From Oceanipulchritudo coccoides (GTDB taxonomy: Bacteria; Verrucomicrobiota; Verrucomicrobiia; Opitutales; Oceanipulchritudinaceae), in contig NZ_JAAGNX010000003.1 in the NCBI RefSeq assembly GCF_010500615.1, forward strand, positions 496,001-560,000: 64,000 bases of DNA, read 5' to 3'. Both the position numbers and the translations under genes were made by a program. Position 1 is the first letter of the stretch, and each line of letters starts with the position of its first letter. The notes beneath the pieces are model-generated. The model made no database searches, was not told where the DNA came from, and saw only the letters and a program-made list of their open reading frames with translations. Below are positions 52,524-58,677 of the stretch, piece after piece.

Positions 52524-52608
52524 GCTCAGGTGGTGGAATTGGTAGACACGCCGTCTTCAGGTGGCGGTGCCTTCGGGTGTGCGGGTTCAAGTCCCGCCCT
52601 GAGTACCA
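52524..52608 (+). tRNA. tRNA-Leu, anticodon CAG
   Basis: An 85-base tRNA with a long variable arm, as expected for Leu. The acceptor 5' strand GCTCAGG pairs with CCTGAGT (first pair G-U). The D-arm is GGTGGAATTGGTAGACA. The anticodon loop TTCAGGT holds CAG between stems CCGTC and GGCGG. The T-arm is GCGGG TTCAAGT CCCGC. CCA is encoded (52606-52608). An integrase gene begins 65 bases downstream, making the tRNA 3' end the likely attachment site. Confidence 0.95.
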
Positions 52609-52672: not shown

Positions 52673-53950
52673 ATGTCGAAATTTAAAATAACTCCTTTTC
52701 TAAATCCAAGTGGAGCCAAGGTATGGCGACTCTCAGGAACACTCAATGGTAAACGTTTCCGTGAAAACTATAAGACGAGAAACGAAGCTGTCGCTAAAAG
52801 GCAGAGTTATGAAGTTAAGCGACTCAATGAGACATCAGAAGGTCAGACCGTCTGGACAACCCTGACTCACAATCAAAACCGTGATGCAATTGCGGCTGTC
52901 AATCTTCTCAAATCCCATGACATGGATTGCTCTTTGAGCTTTGCGGTAAATTACCTTTTGAAAAATTATCGCCCTCCCGAGAACGAAAAATCTGTTTCTG
53001 ATGCTTCCATGGAGTACCTGCGGAAACGGGAACAGGACTTGGTGAGAGGTTTTATTCAAAAACGACAATTAATGGCAATCCGTTCAGAAATGAACTGGAT
53101 TAAACTTTGCCTAGGGGACATTCCCGTTTCATCCCTCTCCCCGGAGGATTTCCGCGAATATTTGGAAAAGCCCAAAGATGCCCCCCGAAACCGCCGTAAA
53201 GTCCCTGAAGTAGCAACCGCAAAAACATGGAATAACCGCAGAGGACTTGTTAACACATTTTGTGAGTATTGCGTGGATCAAGGATATCTCCAAGAAAATC
53301 CTGTGGCCAAAGTCGCTCAGCACAAGATCAAGCACCAAAGAGGTACGGCAAAAACTCTTTCAGCTGATCAAGTACAAGAACTGATGAACTTCCTTGAGAC
53401 ATACACTGGACCGCAATACAAACGGGAAATCTATCGGAATCAACCCGGTTTTTTGGTCCCCTTTTTTGCCCTCGCCCTCTTTGCCGGTATTCGGCCTGAC
53501 TGGAAAGACGGCGAAATGGGGAAATTAAAGCCAAAGGATGTCGATCTCAAAACAGACGTTATCCGCATCGAGCCTGGTGTTTCCAAGACCAACGAAAAAA
53601 GGATTATCAAAATCCAGCCCAATCTCAGACTCTGGTTAGAGCATTATCCTGTCGGGCAGTATCCCATCCTGCCCAAAAAGAATCCGGATCGCATACTCAG
53701 GGCATTGAGGAATCAATTCAGCTTGGGCCATGATGTACTGCGCCATACGTTCATCTCTATGACCGTGGGAACGTTTCGATCGGTCGGCGATGCGTCCCTG
53801 CAAGCAGGCAACTCAGAAGCAGTCATACGCAAACACTACCTTGATCTTAAATCGCCCGAGGAGGCAGACCAATTCTGGCGTATTGTGCCCAAGGGAGCAT
53901 CTCTACCGAAGAAGATGAAAAAGAAAGAAGGACGCTACATTCTTCCATAA
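52673..53950 (+). CDS. int: Tyrosine recombinase / integrase of the island
   Basis: A 425-aa site-specific recombinase. It has an AP2-like arm-binding N-terminus (KVWRLSGTLNGKRFRENYKT), a SAM-like core-binding domain (about 95-215), and the catalytic domain. The active-site set is Arg in FAGIRPDW, Lys in SKTNEKR, HDVLRHTF (HxxR) and the final RKHYLDL with the nucleophile Tyr. The gene lies 65 bases from tRNA-Leu and reads away from it, the usual layout of tRNA-targeting islands. It appears intact. Confidence 0.93.
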   Translation: MSKFKITPFLNPSGAKVWRLSGTLNGKRFRENYKTRNEAVAKRQSYEVKRLNETSEGQTVWTTLTHNQNRDAIAAVNLLKSHDMDCSLSFAVNYLLKNYRPPENEKSVSDASMEYLRKREQDLVRGFIQKRQLMAIRSEMNWIKLCLGDIPVSSLSPEDFREYLEKPKDAPRNRRKVPEVATAKTWNNRRGLVNTFCEYCVDQGYLQENPVAKVAQHKIKHQRGTAKTLSADQVQELMNFLETYTGPQYKREIYRNQPGFLVPFFALALFAGIRPDWKDGEMGKLKPKDVDLKTDVIRIEPGVSKTNEKRIIKIQPNLRLWLEHYPVGQYPILPKKNPDRILRALRNQFSLGHDVLRHTFISMTVGTFRSVGDASLQAGNSEAVIRKHYLDLKSPEEADQFWRIVPKGASLPKKMKKKEGRYILP

Positions 53951-53954
53951 AAGT

Positions 53955-54155
53955 CTAACGAGGTCGAACGGTACAGTTTTTCTCAAGAGCCTCCTTCACT
54001 TGATCCACATTGAACCGGACCAAGTGTCCAATTTTTACGTAGGGGATGCGTCGCTGCGCCTGCATTTGCCGAAGCCACCTGATTGAAGGCCTAGAATTCG
54101 GTTCAAACAGTTCCTCAAGTAAGGTTGGGGCATTGACTAGCTTATCTGCAGGCAT
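53955..54155 (-). CDS. Excisionase-like small HTH protein
   Basis: A 66-aa product from the ATG at 54155. The core SIRWLRQMQAQRRIPYVKIG followed by HLVRFNVDQVKEAL is the MerR/Xis-like helix-turn-helix type 17 pattern, common in excisionases and island regulators. It converges with the integrase (4 bases apart) and lies 4 bases after the E1-like gene, so it is probably the last gene of that operon. A TTG at 54194 is a possible longer start. Confidence 0.8.
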   Translation of the reverse strand: MPADKLVNAPTLLEELFEPNSRPSIRWLRQMQAQRRIPYVKIGHLVRFNVDQVKEALEKNCTVRPR

Positions 54156-54159
54156 TGCT

Positions 54160-54897
54160 TTATCCGCAAAATTTGCAGTCGGGGTTTTTGGCAACGTTCA
54201 GAGATACGTCTGGCATAAACCCCGCTGCATGGATTCGTCGGTGATTCCAGGAAACTGGACGTGTATTCATAAGGAGATGGTCCAGTGCGTATCCCGTGAG
54301 CCCTGCCGCCATAGAATTGATATCGATGGCAGCAGGGATTTCACAGGGAGCCACTCTCTCACTATCTAGATCTAAATCCATGCACCCAAAACAGGCATTC
54401 CCAGGTTCTTGGATGCTAACACTGAAGGACTCTGCAGTATAATCGACAGCAACAAATAGGACTGGCCTGTTAGCTCTCAATCCAGCCGAAAGGGCCGCCC
54501 TTCGCGCACTCTTATTGTCCACAGCACAAATCATGACATCGAAGGATGGCAATATCATGGGATTTTCCGATAATTCCTGAATCGACAACGGGGATCCGAT
54601 CAGCTGGGTGCCTCCAACACAATGGTCCTTGAGACGAACCGCGGCACATTCAGCTTTGTTTTTTCCGACATCCGAAAGACTGAACAATTGGCGGCTTAAA
54701 TTGGACACTGAGATCCTATCAGGGTCGGATAAAAGAAGTGTCCCGATTCCTTTACGGGCCAGTAGCAAGGCTATCAGACTCCCCAAGCCTCCTACCCCTA
54801 TGAGAAGAATTGTTGTATGGAACACTATCTCCTGTAGATACCCGGGAATCACGGCATGTCGTGCGTAAATCTCGTTACGATTGAAGTTTGAAGACAT
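54160..54897 (-). CDS. ThiF/MoeB/E1-like adenylyltransferase of a ubiquitin-like system
   Basis: The 245-aa product starts MSSNFNRNEIYARHAVIPGY, with AGGAGG 7 bases before its ATG. The ATP site is ILLIGVGGLGSLIALLLARK (GVGGLG at 34-39). D58/D60, R69, K81 and D127 (in CAVDNKSARR) match E1 adenylation residues. Zinc cysteines are C169/C172 and C241/C244. C185 in VAPCEIPAAIDINSMAAG is where the catalytic thioester cysteine of E1s lies. It would activate the Ubl from 56084. It overlaps the JAB gene by 23 bases. Confidence 0.9.
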   Translation of the reverse strand: MSSNFNRNEIYARHAVIPGYLQEIVFHTTILLIGVGGLGSLIALLLARKGIGTLLLSDPDRISVSNLSRQLFSLSDVGKNKAECAAVRLKDHCVGGTQLIGSPLSIQELSENPMILPSFDVMICAVDNKSARRAALSAGLRANRPVLFVAVDYTAESFSVSIQEPGNACFGCMDLDLDSERVAPCEIPAAIDINSMAAGLTGYALDHLLMNTRPVSWNHRRIHAAGFMPDVSLNVAKNPDCKFCG

Positions 54898-55465
54898 GCT
54901 CTTCCTCCTGCTTGATCCGTCGACCATAGGTAATGACATTGAATGGAACTGACTTTGTGAAAAAGCGGAAATACCCATCACGGTTCACAATTACCCCAAC
55001 AACCTGCGCTCCGCCCTCTTGTAAATCCCCAATCCAGTCCATATCAGTTTTCGATGGGAGGGTGCTACCAATGCCAAAACCAGGATGGCTATGTCCGACA
55101 AGGAAACAGTTATATCCTTCATCCCGGATCTTGACAAAGGCGCGGGAAGTGGACGCTGCATCCAGAGATGCACTTCCCACAGTTCGGTTTGTTTCATGAC
55201 ATTTCAAAAATGAGGCCGTCATTTGGATTCCTTCGACGGAGGGACCACAAATAAATGCCAGATCTTCATTCTGATCAGTTGTTAGCGCAGTCTGTAGACG
55301 TGTCGCAAATGCCGCGTCTAATCCTATCGTTAACGGCCGTTCTCTAAGCAGATCCTGAACCTCAAAAAAGAGATTATAGTACACATCGGAAAGATCTCGA
55401 TTGCCGATATCCATCTGCGTGCAGATCTTATTTTGGATGCGTTGCTGAATAAGTGTCGTTGTCAT
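54875..55465 (-). CDS. JAB/JAMM metallo-isopeptidase (deubiquitinase-like)
   Basis: A 196-aa protein. The JAMM zinc site is E78 (in GPSVEG), H125-S-H127 in VGHSHPGFG, S138 and D141 (PSKTDMDW). The H-to-S spacing is longer by three than in Rpn11-type proteins. Such enzymes cleave isopeptide bonds or trim Ubl precursors. The ATG overlaps the E2-like stop (ATGA) and has AAAGGAGG upstream. An N-terminal helical segment of about 45 residues precedes the domain. Confidence 0.9.
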   Translation of the reverse strand: MTTTLIQQRIQNKICTQMDIGNRDLSDVYYNLFFEVQDLLRERPLTIGLDAAFATRLQTALTTDQNEDLAFICGPSVEGIQMTASFLKCHETNRTVGSASLDAASTSRAFVKIRDEGYNCFLVGHSHPGFGIGSTLPSKTDMDWIGDLQEGGAQVVGVIVNRDGYFRFFTKSVPFNVITYGRRIKQEEEHVFKLQS

Positions 55466-55827
55466 AACTGTTCTGCCTCCTTTAGTATTTTCTGTAATGA
55501 AATAATCGCATTAGCCGGATGAGCTTCACTGCCGCCGATAAAATGAACCGAGTACCAGTCTCCAAGACTTGAGAAACAGAACTTGTGCTCATGACGGTTC
55601 AGGCCAGGAGGTGGTTTCTGGATAAAGAATTTGTACCCCTGTTCATCCATCTCGACCTTGGTTTTGTACACCCGTCTGGGAGTTCTGAGAAATCCATGGT
55701 ATTCAGATCGAACGGTGCTGCTCCAAAAGCCTTTGATGACAATATCTCGACGTTTAAACCCGTACCTGACCAATGGGTGGCGCTGGTCTTGTTCCAGAGC
55801 GAGATTGCCCCTCCTATTCGCAATCAT
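55462..55827 (-). CDS. E2-like (UBC-fold) conjugating protein
   Basis: A 121-aa protein whose C-terminal two thirds follow the E2 layout. Strands (YKTKVEMDEQGYKFFIQKPPP) are followed by NRHEHKFCFSSLGDWYSVHF and a helix SLQKILKEA. The single cysteine C84, preceded by H79 and H81 and followed by a tryptophan, sits where the E2 catalytic Cys follows the HPN motif. The call rests on pattern plus position between Ubl and JAB/E1 genes; structure prediction is needed to settle it. ATGA overlaps on both sides. Confidence 0.68.
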   Translation of the reverse strand: MIANRRGNLALEQDQRHPLVRYGFKRRDIVIKGFWSSTVRSEYHGFLRTPRRVYKTKVEMDEQGYKFFIQKPPPGLNRHEHKFCFSSLGDWYSVHFIGGSEAHPANAIISLQKILKEAEQL

Positions 55828-56084
55828 TTTAGCCTCCCCACCCTGGTTGGAGTTGCCGCATAGGCCTTCTCATAGGTGCCCGGAAGCAATTGATACAAAT
55901 CATCTGTGTCCTTGTACTGGGAGTGCCCATCATTTGCCACAAGCTCCCAAGATGGAGGTAAATTCATTTTTTCGATGATATCCACTGGCCGGGTCCCGGG
56001 ATTGATATCATACACTTCTGCAATCCCATCGGTTGCTCTTGTTACTTCGAGTTGCTTAGTGGCGTTCTGATTTGTGATGCTCAT
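55824..56084 (-). CDS. Ubiquitin-like (beta-grasp) protein
   Basis: An 86-aa protein. The central part (EVYDINPGTRPVDIIEKMNL, PPSWELVANDGHSQYKDTDD, LYQLLPGTYEKAY) fits a beta-grasp fold with the acidic DxDDLYxLxPG turn seen in bacterial ubiquitin-like proteins. Only one Ubl domain is present. The C-terminus is TPTRVGRLK, so the last glycine is followed by three residues. That implies processing by the JAB protease, or a non-standard terminus. The gene overlaps the upstream gene by 29 bases and the E2-like gene by 4. Confidence 0.72.
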   Translation of the reverse strand: MSITNQNATKQLEVTRATDGIAEVYDINPGTRPVDIIEKMNLPPSWELVANDGHSQYKDTDDLYQLLPGTYEKAYAATPTRVGRLK

Positions 56085-56484
56085 TTTTCTTCTTTCTTTT
56101 TGGATTACTAATGATGGTTTGAATGAAATCCTGAATGGTCAGGGCGTAGATATCCCCTGATTTAACAAGGCGCACTTTAGTCCGTTCGGTTGAGGTCAGG
56201 TGCCGGGCTATTGTTCTTGAGATCTGTTCAAAGAATCGTTCATCCCGGCTCACGACCAGAACCCCATGACAGCCGTTCTTCAAATTTCGCCTGATGTTTC
56301 GAAGGACATTTCGGGGGGTGGATTCAACTTCGATCGCCACTGTTGTCACTGTTGGGATATCCACGACAACTAGGTCCGCATTTCGGTATTCCACGTAGAC
56401 TGCGGCACGGGGATCCCTGCAGAGTGCCTCAATCCGATCCTTTTCCGCTTGATGACCTGGTGATTCGTTACGCGTCTTTTTCAT
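56056..56484 (-). CDS. Basic protein with restriction-nuclease-like core
   Basis: A 142-aa protein. NADLVVVDIPTVTTVAIEVE followed by RNIRRNLKNGCHGVLVVS follows the PD-(D/E)XK strand order (D, then ExE instead of ExK), so it may be a nuclease fold with altered or lost activity. A very basic tail ends the protein (NPKRKKKNEHHKSERH). It overlaps the ATPase gene by 17 bases and the Ubl gene by 29. Partner of the ATPase is inferred from coupling. Confidence 0.6.
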   Translation of the reverse strand: MKKTRNESPGHQAEKDRIEALCRDPRAAVYVEYRNADLVVVDIPTVTTVAIEVESTPRNVLRNIRRNLKNGCHGVLVVSRDERFFEQISRTIARHLTSTERTKVRLVKSGDIYALTIQDFIQTIISNPKRKKKNEHHKSERH

Positions 56485-58153
56485 ACTGCTCTAAGAAGCT
56501 TTCGCCCTTGGGTGTGAGTGTTAGGACTTCCTTGGGCCTACCTCCGGCACTTGGGACCACTCTTCGGGAGGCCAAGAGGTCATTGGAGAGTAATTCTGAC
56601 TTAACCCGATTACCCCTCCCAGACGACCAACCAAGGTTCCGATAATGTTGGACCACCCCATATGCAGGGTTACCGCGGCATGAACTCAGAAGTAAGAGTG
56701 TTTCTTCCAGAATAGGCTCAGGTGGACGTTTCTCCGGGGAGTTATCTTCAGACTCTTCAGGAGATGTCCGTTCGCCAAGAGTAACCCGAAAATCGAGCTT
56801 TCGGACCTTGGCTTTGATCTTTGGTGAATATGTCGCCTGGGAGTGCAACTCTTCCCAATGAGGGGTCATCAGCTGCTCGATCTCTGCCCGGCTTTTGCCA
56901 CGTCCAAGATCATGGTAAGGAATCTTGATTTTCTGAACCGGTCCAGAGCCGGTGTAGATATAGGCTTCACCTGGCGGGAGGTTGAGTAAGTCGGCTTCCT
57001 GAGAAGAATTTAGCCCCATAATTCTTGCCGTTAATTCTGCCTCTTTCGGATTGTTCATCCCCAGAGCGATCACGCTGGAGCAATTATCAACCGCGTCGGG
57101 CAGCAGCTTTTTAACGGACTGTGTACAAAGTATGTTCCCTATACCGTAGCTGCGGTCCTTTGTAATCTTTTCCCGTTGTACTAAGCCATGCTGACTCGTC
57201 TCACCAGTCGCGCCAAAAAACTTTAGCCCTTCGTCCCAGGCATGCACAGAGTGTAATGAGGAATCGTGACCCGTGGCCGTTAGGCGTTCCCATTCCTGTG
57301 TGCATGCAGAACTGATAAGAAGATTCTCCTGTCTCGCTGGAATGCTCTTTCTGGAGAAAATAATTAATTCCTTACCCAGTAACGGCGGTTCAGGAGCTAT
57401 TCTAACCCGACTGAGATCTCCAATAGATTTGCAGATATTAAAGAGCGCATTGGACAAGTTTTGGTGCTTCGCAGAATCTTCCCCTCCGATCTTGGAAACA
57501 ACCCCAGCGATATCTTGCAGGGAAGGAAGGTCATCTGGATCGTGACAATAGTCTGCCAGTATTGAGTTAAGTGTGTTTCTGGCACTTGGGTGACTTGATG
57601 CGTAATCTCCCAGACATCTCGCTACAAATGCATTTCGCGTTTGCTGATCGACAAAGCCTTTGAAAAGATTCCAACGCTCATGCCTGGGTTCCAAGAAAAG
57701 CGCATCAGGGAAAACGTTGAGGAAATTGCATCCAGTATCCTTGTGGTCGAAGAAATGGACTTTTATACCTTTCGCCAAAAGACCGATTATGATTTGGACC
57801 AGCATGTTTGTCTTCCCCTTCCCGCTGGCGGCGATGACAAGAATATGGGTCGCGAAGAACAGGAGGTTGAGAAAATAGGGTAAGCCCGAATCAATAATCT
57901 TACCAAGGAGGATGCCTGTTGCTGGATCTCCAACCGGTCCAGTATTCTCATTAGGTGAGAAGAACTGCCGTGCCACCTCCTCAGCGATTCTAGCTTTAAC
58001 GAATTGCTCGAATTTGCCGTTTCGATCCGCAGGAGTCCCGATTAGGCTCAGGTAGTGCCCATGCAACAGGTCCTTATCTAACCCTAAATCCTTGGACTGC
58101 TGAACGTACTCGATCAGCATGGCCCCTTTCGGCTGACAAGAGGTGGACTTCAT
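56468..58153 (-). CDS. HerA/VirD4-type P-loop ATPase with C-terminal winged helix
   Basis: A 561-aa ATPase. Walker A is IAASGKGKT (to T115), the strand KVHFFDHKDTG follows, and Walker B is VHAWDEGLKFF (DE at 307-308). A sensor-like ILCTQSVKKLLPDAVDNCSS and LNLPPGEAYIY are typical of HerA/FtsK/VirD4 hexamers. The last ~100 residues look like a winged helix (NRVKSELLSNDLLASRRVVP). A DNA pump or conjugative coupling protein is likely. No relaxase is visible in the window. AGGAGG precedes the ATG. Confidence 0.82.
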   Translation of the reverse strand: MKSTSCQPKGAMLIEYVQQSKDLGLDKDLLHGHYLSLIGTPADRNGKFEQFVKARIAEEVARQFFSPNENTGPVGDPATGILLGKIIDSGLPYFLNLLFFATHILVIAASGKGKTNMLVQIIIGLLAKGIKVHFFDHKDTGCNFLNVFPDALFLEPRHERWNLFKGFVDQQTRNAFVARCLGDYASSHPSARNTLNSILADYCHDPDDLPSLQDIAGVVSKIGGEDSAKHQNLSNALFNICKSIGDLSRVRIAPEPPLLGKELIIFSRKSIPARQENLLISSACTQEWERLTATGHDSSLHSVHAWDEGLKFFGATGETSQHGLVQREKITKDRSYGIGNILCTQSVKKLLPDAVDNCSSVIALGMNNPKEAELTARIMGLNSSQEADLLNLPPGEAYIYTGSGPVQKIKIPYHDLGRGKSRAEIEQLMTPHWEELHSQATYSPKIKAKVRKLDFRVTLGERTSPEESEDNSPEKRPPEPILEETLLLLSSCRGNPAYGVVQHYRNLGWSSGRGNRVKSELLSNDLLASRRVVPSAGGRPKEVLTLTPKGESFLEQYEKDA

Positions 58154-58677
58154 GACTTATTCCTCCTGTCGTGATCTTTCCAAGTATCGTGCTGGCGAAG
58201 AAGAAAATGCAATTCGTGCGGGCTCACATTCAGCTTCTCTCCCGCGGGGCTTTCATACACCCTGCGGCAGCGTTCACAAAGGGACTGCTGACTGATTGCA
58301 CTTAAAATAACTTCGCTTTCAGCGTTCCCGCAAACGGAGCAAAAGGCCTTTACCTTATCCGCCTCGATCACCTTGTTTGAACCTGTTACCACGAATGTGG
58401 ACCGGGTGTCACATTCCATGGTGTTGCCGTGACGATCAAAGTGTGAGACCTTCTGTGTAATGGATTCCCCCATCCGCAGAGGACGATACGTATGATGCTC
58501 ACGTTCCCGATGTCCGCTTTTGGGCTGTTGGCCCTGTTGAGCTTCTCGGCAGGATGGATTTCCGCGACCAGATTCATGGTAGCGGGGTTGTGGAATACGC
58601 GAAGCAAAACCGGTATTCTCTTGAGAACCAAGTATACCTTTCATCCACCTGCTGGCTTTTGTGAAAAGCGTTTTCAT
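58150..58677 (-). CDS. Zinc-ribbon protein of unknown function
   Basis: A 175-aa protein with a basic, low-complexity N-terminal half (QPRYHESGRGNPSCREAQQG) and a C-terminal zinc ribbon, FCSVCGNAESEVILSAISQ then LCERCRRVY (CxxC...CxxC). It ends with a charged tail. It overlaps the ATPase gene (ATGA) and the upstream membrane gene (TAATG), so it is translationally tied to both. It may bind nucleic acid or serve as an adaptor or target; nothing shows which. Confidence 0.7.
   Translation of the reverse strand: MKTLFTKASRWMKGILGSQENTGFASRIPQPRYHESGRGNPSCREAQQGQQPKSGHREREHHTYRPLRMGESITQKVSHFDRHGNTMECDTRSTFVVTGSNKVIEADKVKAFCSVCGNAESEVILSAISQQSLCERCRRVYESPAGEKLNVSPHELHFLLRQHDTWKDHDRRNKS

What the first reader, a model, noticed from the sequence alone, without database searches (positions are those of the whole stretch)
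54160..56084. Complete ubiquitin-like conjugation cassette (Ubl, E2-like, JAB, E1-like) in a bacterial island
Four overlapping genes encode a single-domain beta-grasp protein, an E2-like protein with one Cys (C84) in an H-x-H-x2-C setting, a JAMM isopeptidase (H125/H127/S138/D141) and an E1-like enzyme with GVGGLG, zinc CxxC pairs and a catalytic-type C185. Every junction overlaps, so a fixed ratio of products is likely. Known bacterial relatives include Bil-type antiphage operons and other Ubl/E1/E2/JAB operons. This one differs from Bil in gene order (JAB before E1) and in having a short, one-domain Ubl. It may be an unstudied subtype, either defensive or tied to the element's transfer.
Basis: partly seen in the sequence, partly recalled or inferred. 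Interest (0 to 1): 0.92.

Follow-up and report, generated by a model that had tools for sequence, protein, structure and literature searches.

The report
Minimal bacterial ubiquitin-like tagging cassette
A mobile DNA element in this bacterium carries four overlapping genes that look like a complete, very small ubiquitin-type protein-tagging system (tag, activating enzyme, conjugating enzyme and tag-removing protease), of a rare family that fits none of the named bacterial versions tested here and is most likely an optional, perhaps defensive, cargo.

Summary
Minus strand 56084-54160 encodes Ubl (86 aa), E2-like (121 aa), JAB/JAMM (196 aa) and MoeB/ThiF-type E1 (245 aa). All junctions overlap; E2, JAB and E1 have a Shine-Dalgarno-like sequence inside the previous gene. 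Four other loci (Victivallaceae MAG; two copies in a Kiritimatiellae MAG; one IMG/VR contig), only 21-41% identical to the window proteins, keep the same order and every catalytic residue. The two Kiritimatiellae copies show purifying selection (dN/dS 0.12-0.22). AlphaFold gives the Ubl a ubiquitin fold (pLDDT 83). The E2 model (pLDDT 82) is UBC/UEV-like, with moderate support. The Ubl ends in an invariant Val-Gly plus a short tail, and in one relative Ubl and E2 are one polypeptide, so the JAB probably matures the Ubl. The real differences are a one-domain Ubl and a minimal E1. It fails tested PRTRC criteria. Related elements without the cassette, and one carrying it without the shared backbone, argue for accessory cargo rather than transfer machinery. 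Defence is plausible but unproven. Verdict: new variant of a known kind.

The parts
55824..56084 (-). Ubl, 86 aa, single beta-grasp domain, C-terminus V82-G83-RLK
   Evidence: AlphaFold pLDDT 83.1, b-b-a-b-a-b topology; Foldseek hits to ubiquitin/SUMO/BilA E about 1e-4, TM about 0.65; VIA Z up to 9.2, BilA 8tyx Z 8.8; V-G invariant in 5 loci
55462..55827 (-). E2-like, 121 aa, C84 with invariant H81 and H95
   Evidence: H81, C84, H95 and P72-P73 invariant in 5 loci; AlphaFold pLDDT 81.6, four-strand meander plus C-terminal helix; VIA: UEV/UBC folds fill the top rows, Z 8.1 TSG101 UEV, 6.8 bacterial CdnG-E2, 5.2 Ubc9; Foldseek not significant
54875..55465 (-). JAB/JAMM metallo-isopeptidase, 196 aa (E67, H125, H127, S138, D141)
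   Evidence: invariant motif in 5 loci; Prok-JAB in 4 of 5 members, best 3.8e-7; profile hits RPN11 E=0.003
54160..54897 (-). E1-like, 245 aa, single MoeB/ThiF-type adenylation domain, two CxxC pairs, C185
   Evidence: ThiF Pfam 2.4e-29; profile to MoeB 1jw9 4e-23; residues invariant in 5 loci; AGGAGG before ATG 54897
53955..54194 (-). excisionase-like HTH protein, 79 aa, at the 3' end of the operon
   Evidence: TIGR01764 excise E=1e-4, HTH_17 0.011, both below cut-off
52673..53950 (+). tyrosine integrase of the element, next to tRNA-Leu
   Evidence: Phage_integrase E=8.5e-5, below Pfam cut-off; tRNA-Leu 52524-52608; GC falls from about 0.55 to 0.48 here
56056..56484 (-). 142-aa backbone protein, perhaps PD-(D/E)xK nuclease-like (inference); shared with related elements that lack the cassette
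   Evidence: found in 8 of 378 genomes of the phylum; invariant E32, D37, E52xE54
56468..58153 (-). FtsK/HerA-like ATPase of the element backbone, 561 aa
   Evidence: FtsK_SpoIIIE 1.1e-4, DUF87 8e-4, both below cut-off; found in 7 of 378 genomes
58150..58677 (-). backbone zinc-finger-like protein, 175 aa
   Evidence: conserved Cys pattern in 7 elements; weak B-box hit E=0.015 in one relative

Best explanation
A self-contained ubiquitin-like conjugation and deconjugation cassette, carried as accessory cargo between the shared operon of a family of integrative elements and their recombinase. Proposed cycle: the JAB enzyme trims the Ubl behind G83 (VG|RLK), the MoeB/ThiF-like E1 adenylates G83 and takes it as a thioester on C185, the E2 receives it on C84 and passes it to target lysines, and the JAB can take it off again. 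The most likely purpose is interference with invading phages or other elements; a maintenance or addiction role for the element is the main alternative purpose. Shown here: gene order, domains, predicted folds, residue conservation, selection and genomic context. Inferred: every biochemical step and the purpose.
For: Five loci with identical order and invariant catalytic residues at low identity. Predicted ubiquitin fold and UBC/UEV-like fold. E1 closest to MoeB, UBA6, MccB, UBA5 and UBA4-type enzymes. dN/dS 0.12-0.22 for the four genes between the two G372 copies. Invariant VG followed by a variable tail (RLK, RLAA, QLAA, IPGNKF), and in L014 the same VG leads directly into the E2 polypeptide, as expected if a JAB processes it. 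Cassette optional: L072, L073, L075, L076 have the ATPase/142-aa backbone without it and L074 has GrpE-DnaK-vWA in the slot; L017 has the cassette without the ATPase/142-aa backbone in its 15 kb, 1.1 kb from a GmrSD-type gene. Literature: Bil is an antiphage Ubl system and BilC trims BilA (PMC11354881).
Against: Ubl and E2 have no sequence match to any known family, and Foldseek gives the E2 model no significant hit; the best structural match is UEV, an inactive E2 variant, so activity rests on the invariant C84/H81/H95. Only one of five Ubl models was confident. No defence assay exists. G83 is not followed by the end of the chain and there is no di-glycine. The Ubl-E2 fusion comes from one MAG contig at 4.7x coverage.
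Confidence: 0.6

Rival explanations
1. A PRTRC-like maintenance module: the conjugation chemistry is as above, but it serves stability or DNA processing of mobile elements rather than defence.
For: Same order Ubl-(F)-E2-JAB-E1 as PRTRC on plasmids; similar VG-type C-terminal tail in two PRTRC protein C homologues (VGTFR, VGNFN); E2 Cys with a downstream His as described for operon type 6d (PMC1779556). All five loci look element-borne.
Against: No ParB, E or F genes beside it; Ubl, E2 and JAB profiles show no significant similarity to PRTRC C, B, A (E 0.09, 0.77, 0.04); related elements live without it.
Confidence: 0.25
2. A sulfur-carrier pathway: the Ubl is a ThiS/MoaD/QbsE-like sulfur carrier, trimmed by the JAMM protease and adenylated by the E1; the E2-like protein is a binding partner only.
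For: E1 is closest to MoeB/ThiF; JAMM trimming of a C-terminal extension on a sulfur carrier has precedent (own knowledge: QbsE/QbsD, CysO/Mec).
Against: Invariant E2 Cys and His residues; no rhodanese or cofactor-synthesis gene seen in the operon.
Confidence: 0.1
3. The E2-like protein is an inactive UEV-type Ubl binder, and E1 attaches the Ubl directly.
For: Top structural matches are TSG101/Vps23 UEV domains.
Against: C84, H81 and H95 are invariant across loci at 21-24% identity, and the CBASS E2 (CdnG-E2) also aligns over 102 residues.
Confidence: 0.1

Closest known systems
PRTRC system (operon type 6d of Iyer et al. 2006)
   Same: separate genes for one-domain Ubl, E2, JAB and ThiF-type E1 in the same relative order; E2 Cys with downstream His; Gly near the Ubl C-terminus; carried by mobile elements
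   Different: no ParB/E/F genes; E1 scores 52.9 against a PRTRC_ThiF cut-off of 144.75; Ubl, E2, JAB not detectably related by profile comparison
Bil (BilABCD) antiphage system
   Same: Ubl, E2, JAB and E1 as four genes, named in the same order; DUB matures the Ubl in Bil; BilA is among the structural matches of the Ubl model
   Different: BilA has two Ubl domains, BilD has two adenylation domains and a Cys domain, BilB has a CEHH motif (PMC11354881); here one Ubl domain, one adenylation domain, H-x2-C...H
Operon type 6e (polyUbl; related to Bub operons, relation from memory)
   Same: Ubl plus E1 and JAB on mobile clusters
   Different: 6e typically fuses JAB to E1, carries one to three Ubl repeats, and its E2 lacks the Cys (PMC1779556)
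CBASS Cap2/Cap3 and types 6a-6c
   Same: E1, E2 and JAB chemistry; E1 resembles PADLOC E1-E2 models
   Different: E2 is fused to E1 in those systems (PMC1779556); no CD-NTase, MBL or nucleotidyltransferase gene recognised beside this cassette

Membership tests
PRTRC | E1 above the PRTRC_ThiF curated cut-off (144.75 bits) | tested here: not met
   52.9 bits; 51.7 bits in genome search
PRTRC | ParB, protein E and protein F in the cassette | tested here: not met
   neighbours are ATPase, 142-aa, excisionase and integrase; canonical PRTRC shown
PRTRC | Order Ubl - E2 - JAB - E1 as separate genes | tested here: met
PRTRC | Ubl, E2 and JAB homologous to PRTRC C, B, A | tested here: inconclusive
   hhalign E 0.09, 0.77, 0.04, small alignments
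Bil | Ubl with two tandem beta-grasp domains | tested here: not met
   86 aa, one domain
Bil | E1 with inactive and active adenylation domains and Cys domain | tested here: not met
   245 aa, a single ThiF domain
Bil | Phage protection by Ubl conjugation to virion proteins | not testable with these tools
   needs plaque assays and mass spectrometry
Iyer type 6e | JAB fused to E1 and E2-like domain without Cys (typical members) | tested here: not met
   separate JAB and E1 genes; C84 invariant
CBASS type II / 6a-6c | E2 fused to E1 | tested here: not met
   separate ORFs
JAMM/JAB peptidase | E...HxH...SxxD zinc motif | tested here: met
   E67, H125, H127, S138, D141 invariant
ubiquitin-like beta-grasp protein | ubiquitin fold | tested here: met
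E2/UBC fold | UBC fold with catalytic Cys | tested here: inconclusive
   fold matches Z up to 8.1, mostly UEV/UBC rows; Foldseek not significant; Cys invariant; its position on the UBC active site could not be superposed

The most novel reading that the evidence does not exclude
An undescribed lineage of complete bacterial ubiquitin-like conjugation, outside Bil, Bub, CBASS and PRTRC, built from very small parts (one-domain Ubl, 121-aa E2, MoeB-like E1, separate JAB), in which the JAB matures the Ubl and in some members releases it from a Ubl-E2 precursor, and which defends hosts of integrative elements.
Probability: 0.3. Interest if true: 0.72.

Novelty: new variant of a known kind. Interest (0 to 1): 0.52.

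Why it matters
If active, it would be an especially compact complete ubiquitin-like pathway, combining a MoeB/ThiF-type E1 with a dedicated E2 and deconjugase. That would make the step from sulfur-carrier activation to protein tagging, and the minimum needed for E2-mediated conjugation, testable in a four-gene system. The accessory slot it occupies also gives a way to look for other cargo in the same element family.

Tried and rejected
Pfam, NCBIfam and PADLOC scans of the window Ubl and E2 gave nothing significant, nor did Pfam scans of all family members. Foldseek alone did not support the E2 fold; the VIA re-alignment did, moderately. tblastn of JAB and E1 against plasmids found nothing. 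The genome-contig scan found only the three MAG loci; its patterns are strict, so rarity is a lower bound. IMG/VR E1 hits L018-L025 look like PRTRC-type or other E1/JAB cassettes of phages, not this family. An E2 scan of IMG/VR found none. The weak G280 JAB hit (E=9e-4) looks RadC-like by its sequence, not this family. No exact att repeat of the tRNA-Leu end was found up to 94000, so the far end of the element is not fixed. The Chambers 2024, Gong 2025 and Ye 2026 papers are not held, so comparison with Bil and Bub details rests on a review and on memory.

Full report
Observation. They follow, with overlaps, an FtsK/HerA-like ATPase gene and a 142-aa gene, and are followed by an excisionase-like 79-aa ORF. 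A plus-strand integrase (weak Pfam match) lies beside tRNA-Leu, where GC content falls. E2, JAB and E1 have Shine-Dalgarno-like sequences inside the preceding gene, and the E1 ATG is at 54897, giving 245 aa.

Relatives. A protein search of 388 genomes of the phylum found the JAB in the window genome and two other genomes, one with two copies; a further weak hit is RadC-like. Their neighbourhoods show Ubl, E2, JAB and E1 in the same order. Through the genome-contig scan these are a Victivallaceae MAG (L014) and a Kiritimatiellae MAG (L015, L016). IMG/VR adds one contig, L017, with all four genes. An independent search with the E2 profile found the same genomes. Identities to the window are 23-31% (Ubl), 21-24% (E2), 26-31% (JAB) and 33-41% (E1), yet the catalytic residues are invariant. 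Between the two Kiritimatiellae copies dN/dS is 0.12 (Ubl), 0.22 (E2), 0.15 (JAB) and 0.13 (E1). This is well beyond chance and shows selection on all four products.

Folds. The Ubl model (pLDDT 83; only one of five models is confident) is a ubiquitin fold. The E2 model (pLDDT 82, all five models 76-82) has a four-stranded meander, the Cys loop and a C-terminal helix. Foldseek alone finds nothing significant. On re-alignment UEV and UBC domains fill the top of the list: TSG101 UEV Z 8.1 over 94 residues, bacterial CdnG-E2 Z 6.8 over 102, Ubc9 about Z 5. E1 is a single MoeB/ThiF-type domain and JAB a JAMM enzyme.

How it may work. The Ubl tail is always Val-Gly plus a variable extension: RLK, RLAA, QLAA, IPGNKF. 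In L014 the Gly leads straight into the E2 polypeptide; no stop or frame break lies at the junction, though the contig has low coverage. The simplest reading is that the JAB cuts behind the Gly to expose it, E1 activates it, E2 conjugates it, and the JAB reverses the reaction. These steps are inference from established chemistry of the families; BilC is reported to trim BilA in this way.

Context. The ATPase and 142-aa genes occur in related elements of other genomes. Upstream gene order is shared (most fully in L072), but the slot behind the 142-aa gene differs: this cassette in the window and G372, a D12 methylase in L072, GrpE-DnaK-vWA in L074, a 203-aa gene and a serine recombinase in L076, and only a 105-aa ORF before Xis/Int in L075. 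L014 has the cassette with related upstream genes but no 142-aa gene. L017 carries the cassette without the ATPase/142-aa backbone in its 15 kb, 1.1 kb from a GmrSD-type gene and with an integrase nearby. One G372 copy lies beside a large predicted ATPase with HEAT repeats. The cassette is therefore optional and portable. This favours cargo over transfer machinery, and defence is a reasonable but unproven purpose.

Comparison. The order is not unusual: Bil is named Ubl-E2-DUB-E1, and PRTRC is C-F-B-A-ThiF. PRTRC membership fails on the E1 cut-off and on missing ParB, E and F; profile comparison of Ubl, E2 and JAB is not significant. Bil membership fails on the Ubl and E1 architecture. Types 6a-6c and 6e fail on fusions or on the E2 Cys. 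The cassette works like these systems but belongs to none that was tested. I rate it a new variant of a known kind; literature access was limited.

Noticed in passing
window 56056-56484: The 142-aa protein family keeps E32, D37 and E52-x-E54, a pattern that looks like a PD-(D/E)xK nuclease; in the elements seen it sits behind the HerA/FtsK-like ATPase.
   Followed up: partly
window 58150-58677; L016 5052-5681; L074 5554-6174: Zinc-finger-like protein upstream of the ATPase, in some relatives with a B-box-like Cys/His pattern; its role is unknown, and it also occurs without the Ubl cassette.
   Followed up: partly
L074 316-3868: A related element carries GrpE, DnaK and a vWA-domain protein in the slot where the window has the Ubl cassette (names by eye).
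   Followed up: no
L019, L021, L022, L025: IMG/VR virus contigs carry PRTRC-like cassettes with E2-like, JAB (HSHNTMDAFFSGTDD-type) and E1 genes; L019 and L021 also have a small Ubl-like gene.
   Followed up: no
L040, L041: Small E1-like and JAB-like genes with Zn-ribbon proteins and a reverse transcriptase lie beside repeat arrays that look like CRISPR in two genomes.
   Followed up: no
L042 5224-7547: A different Ubl (89 aa), E1 (396 aa) and JAB (282 aa, with a likely transmembrane segment) operon in another genome of the phylum.
   Followed up: no
beyond the window, coordinate 65821-66378 (L012 5821-6378): Just beyond the window the island encodes an IrrE-like protease matching CapP (3.4e-32), a BpsA_C-type protein similar to mad2, and further on a second HerA-like ATPase.
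   Followed up: partly
L009 2077-5787: A 1236-aa predicted ATPase with HEAT repeats (NACHT-like by eye) is encoded next to one Kiritimatiellae copy.
   Followed up: partly
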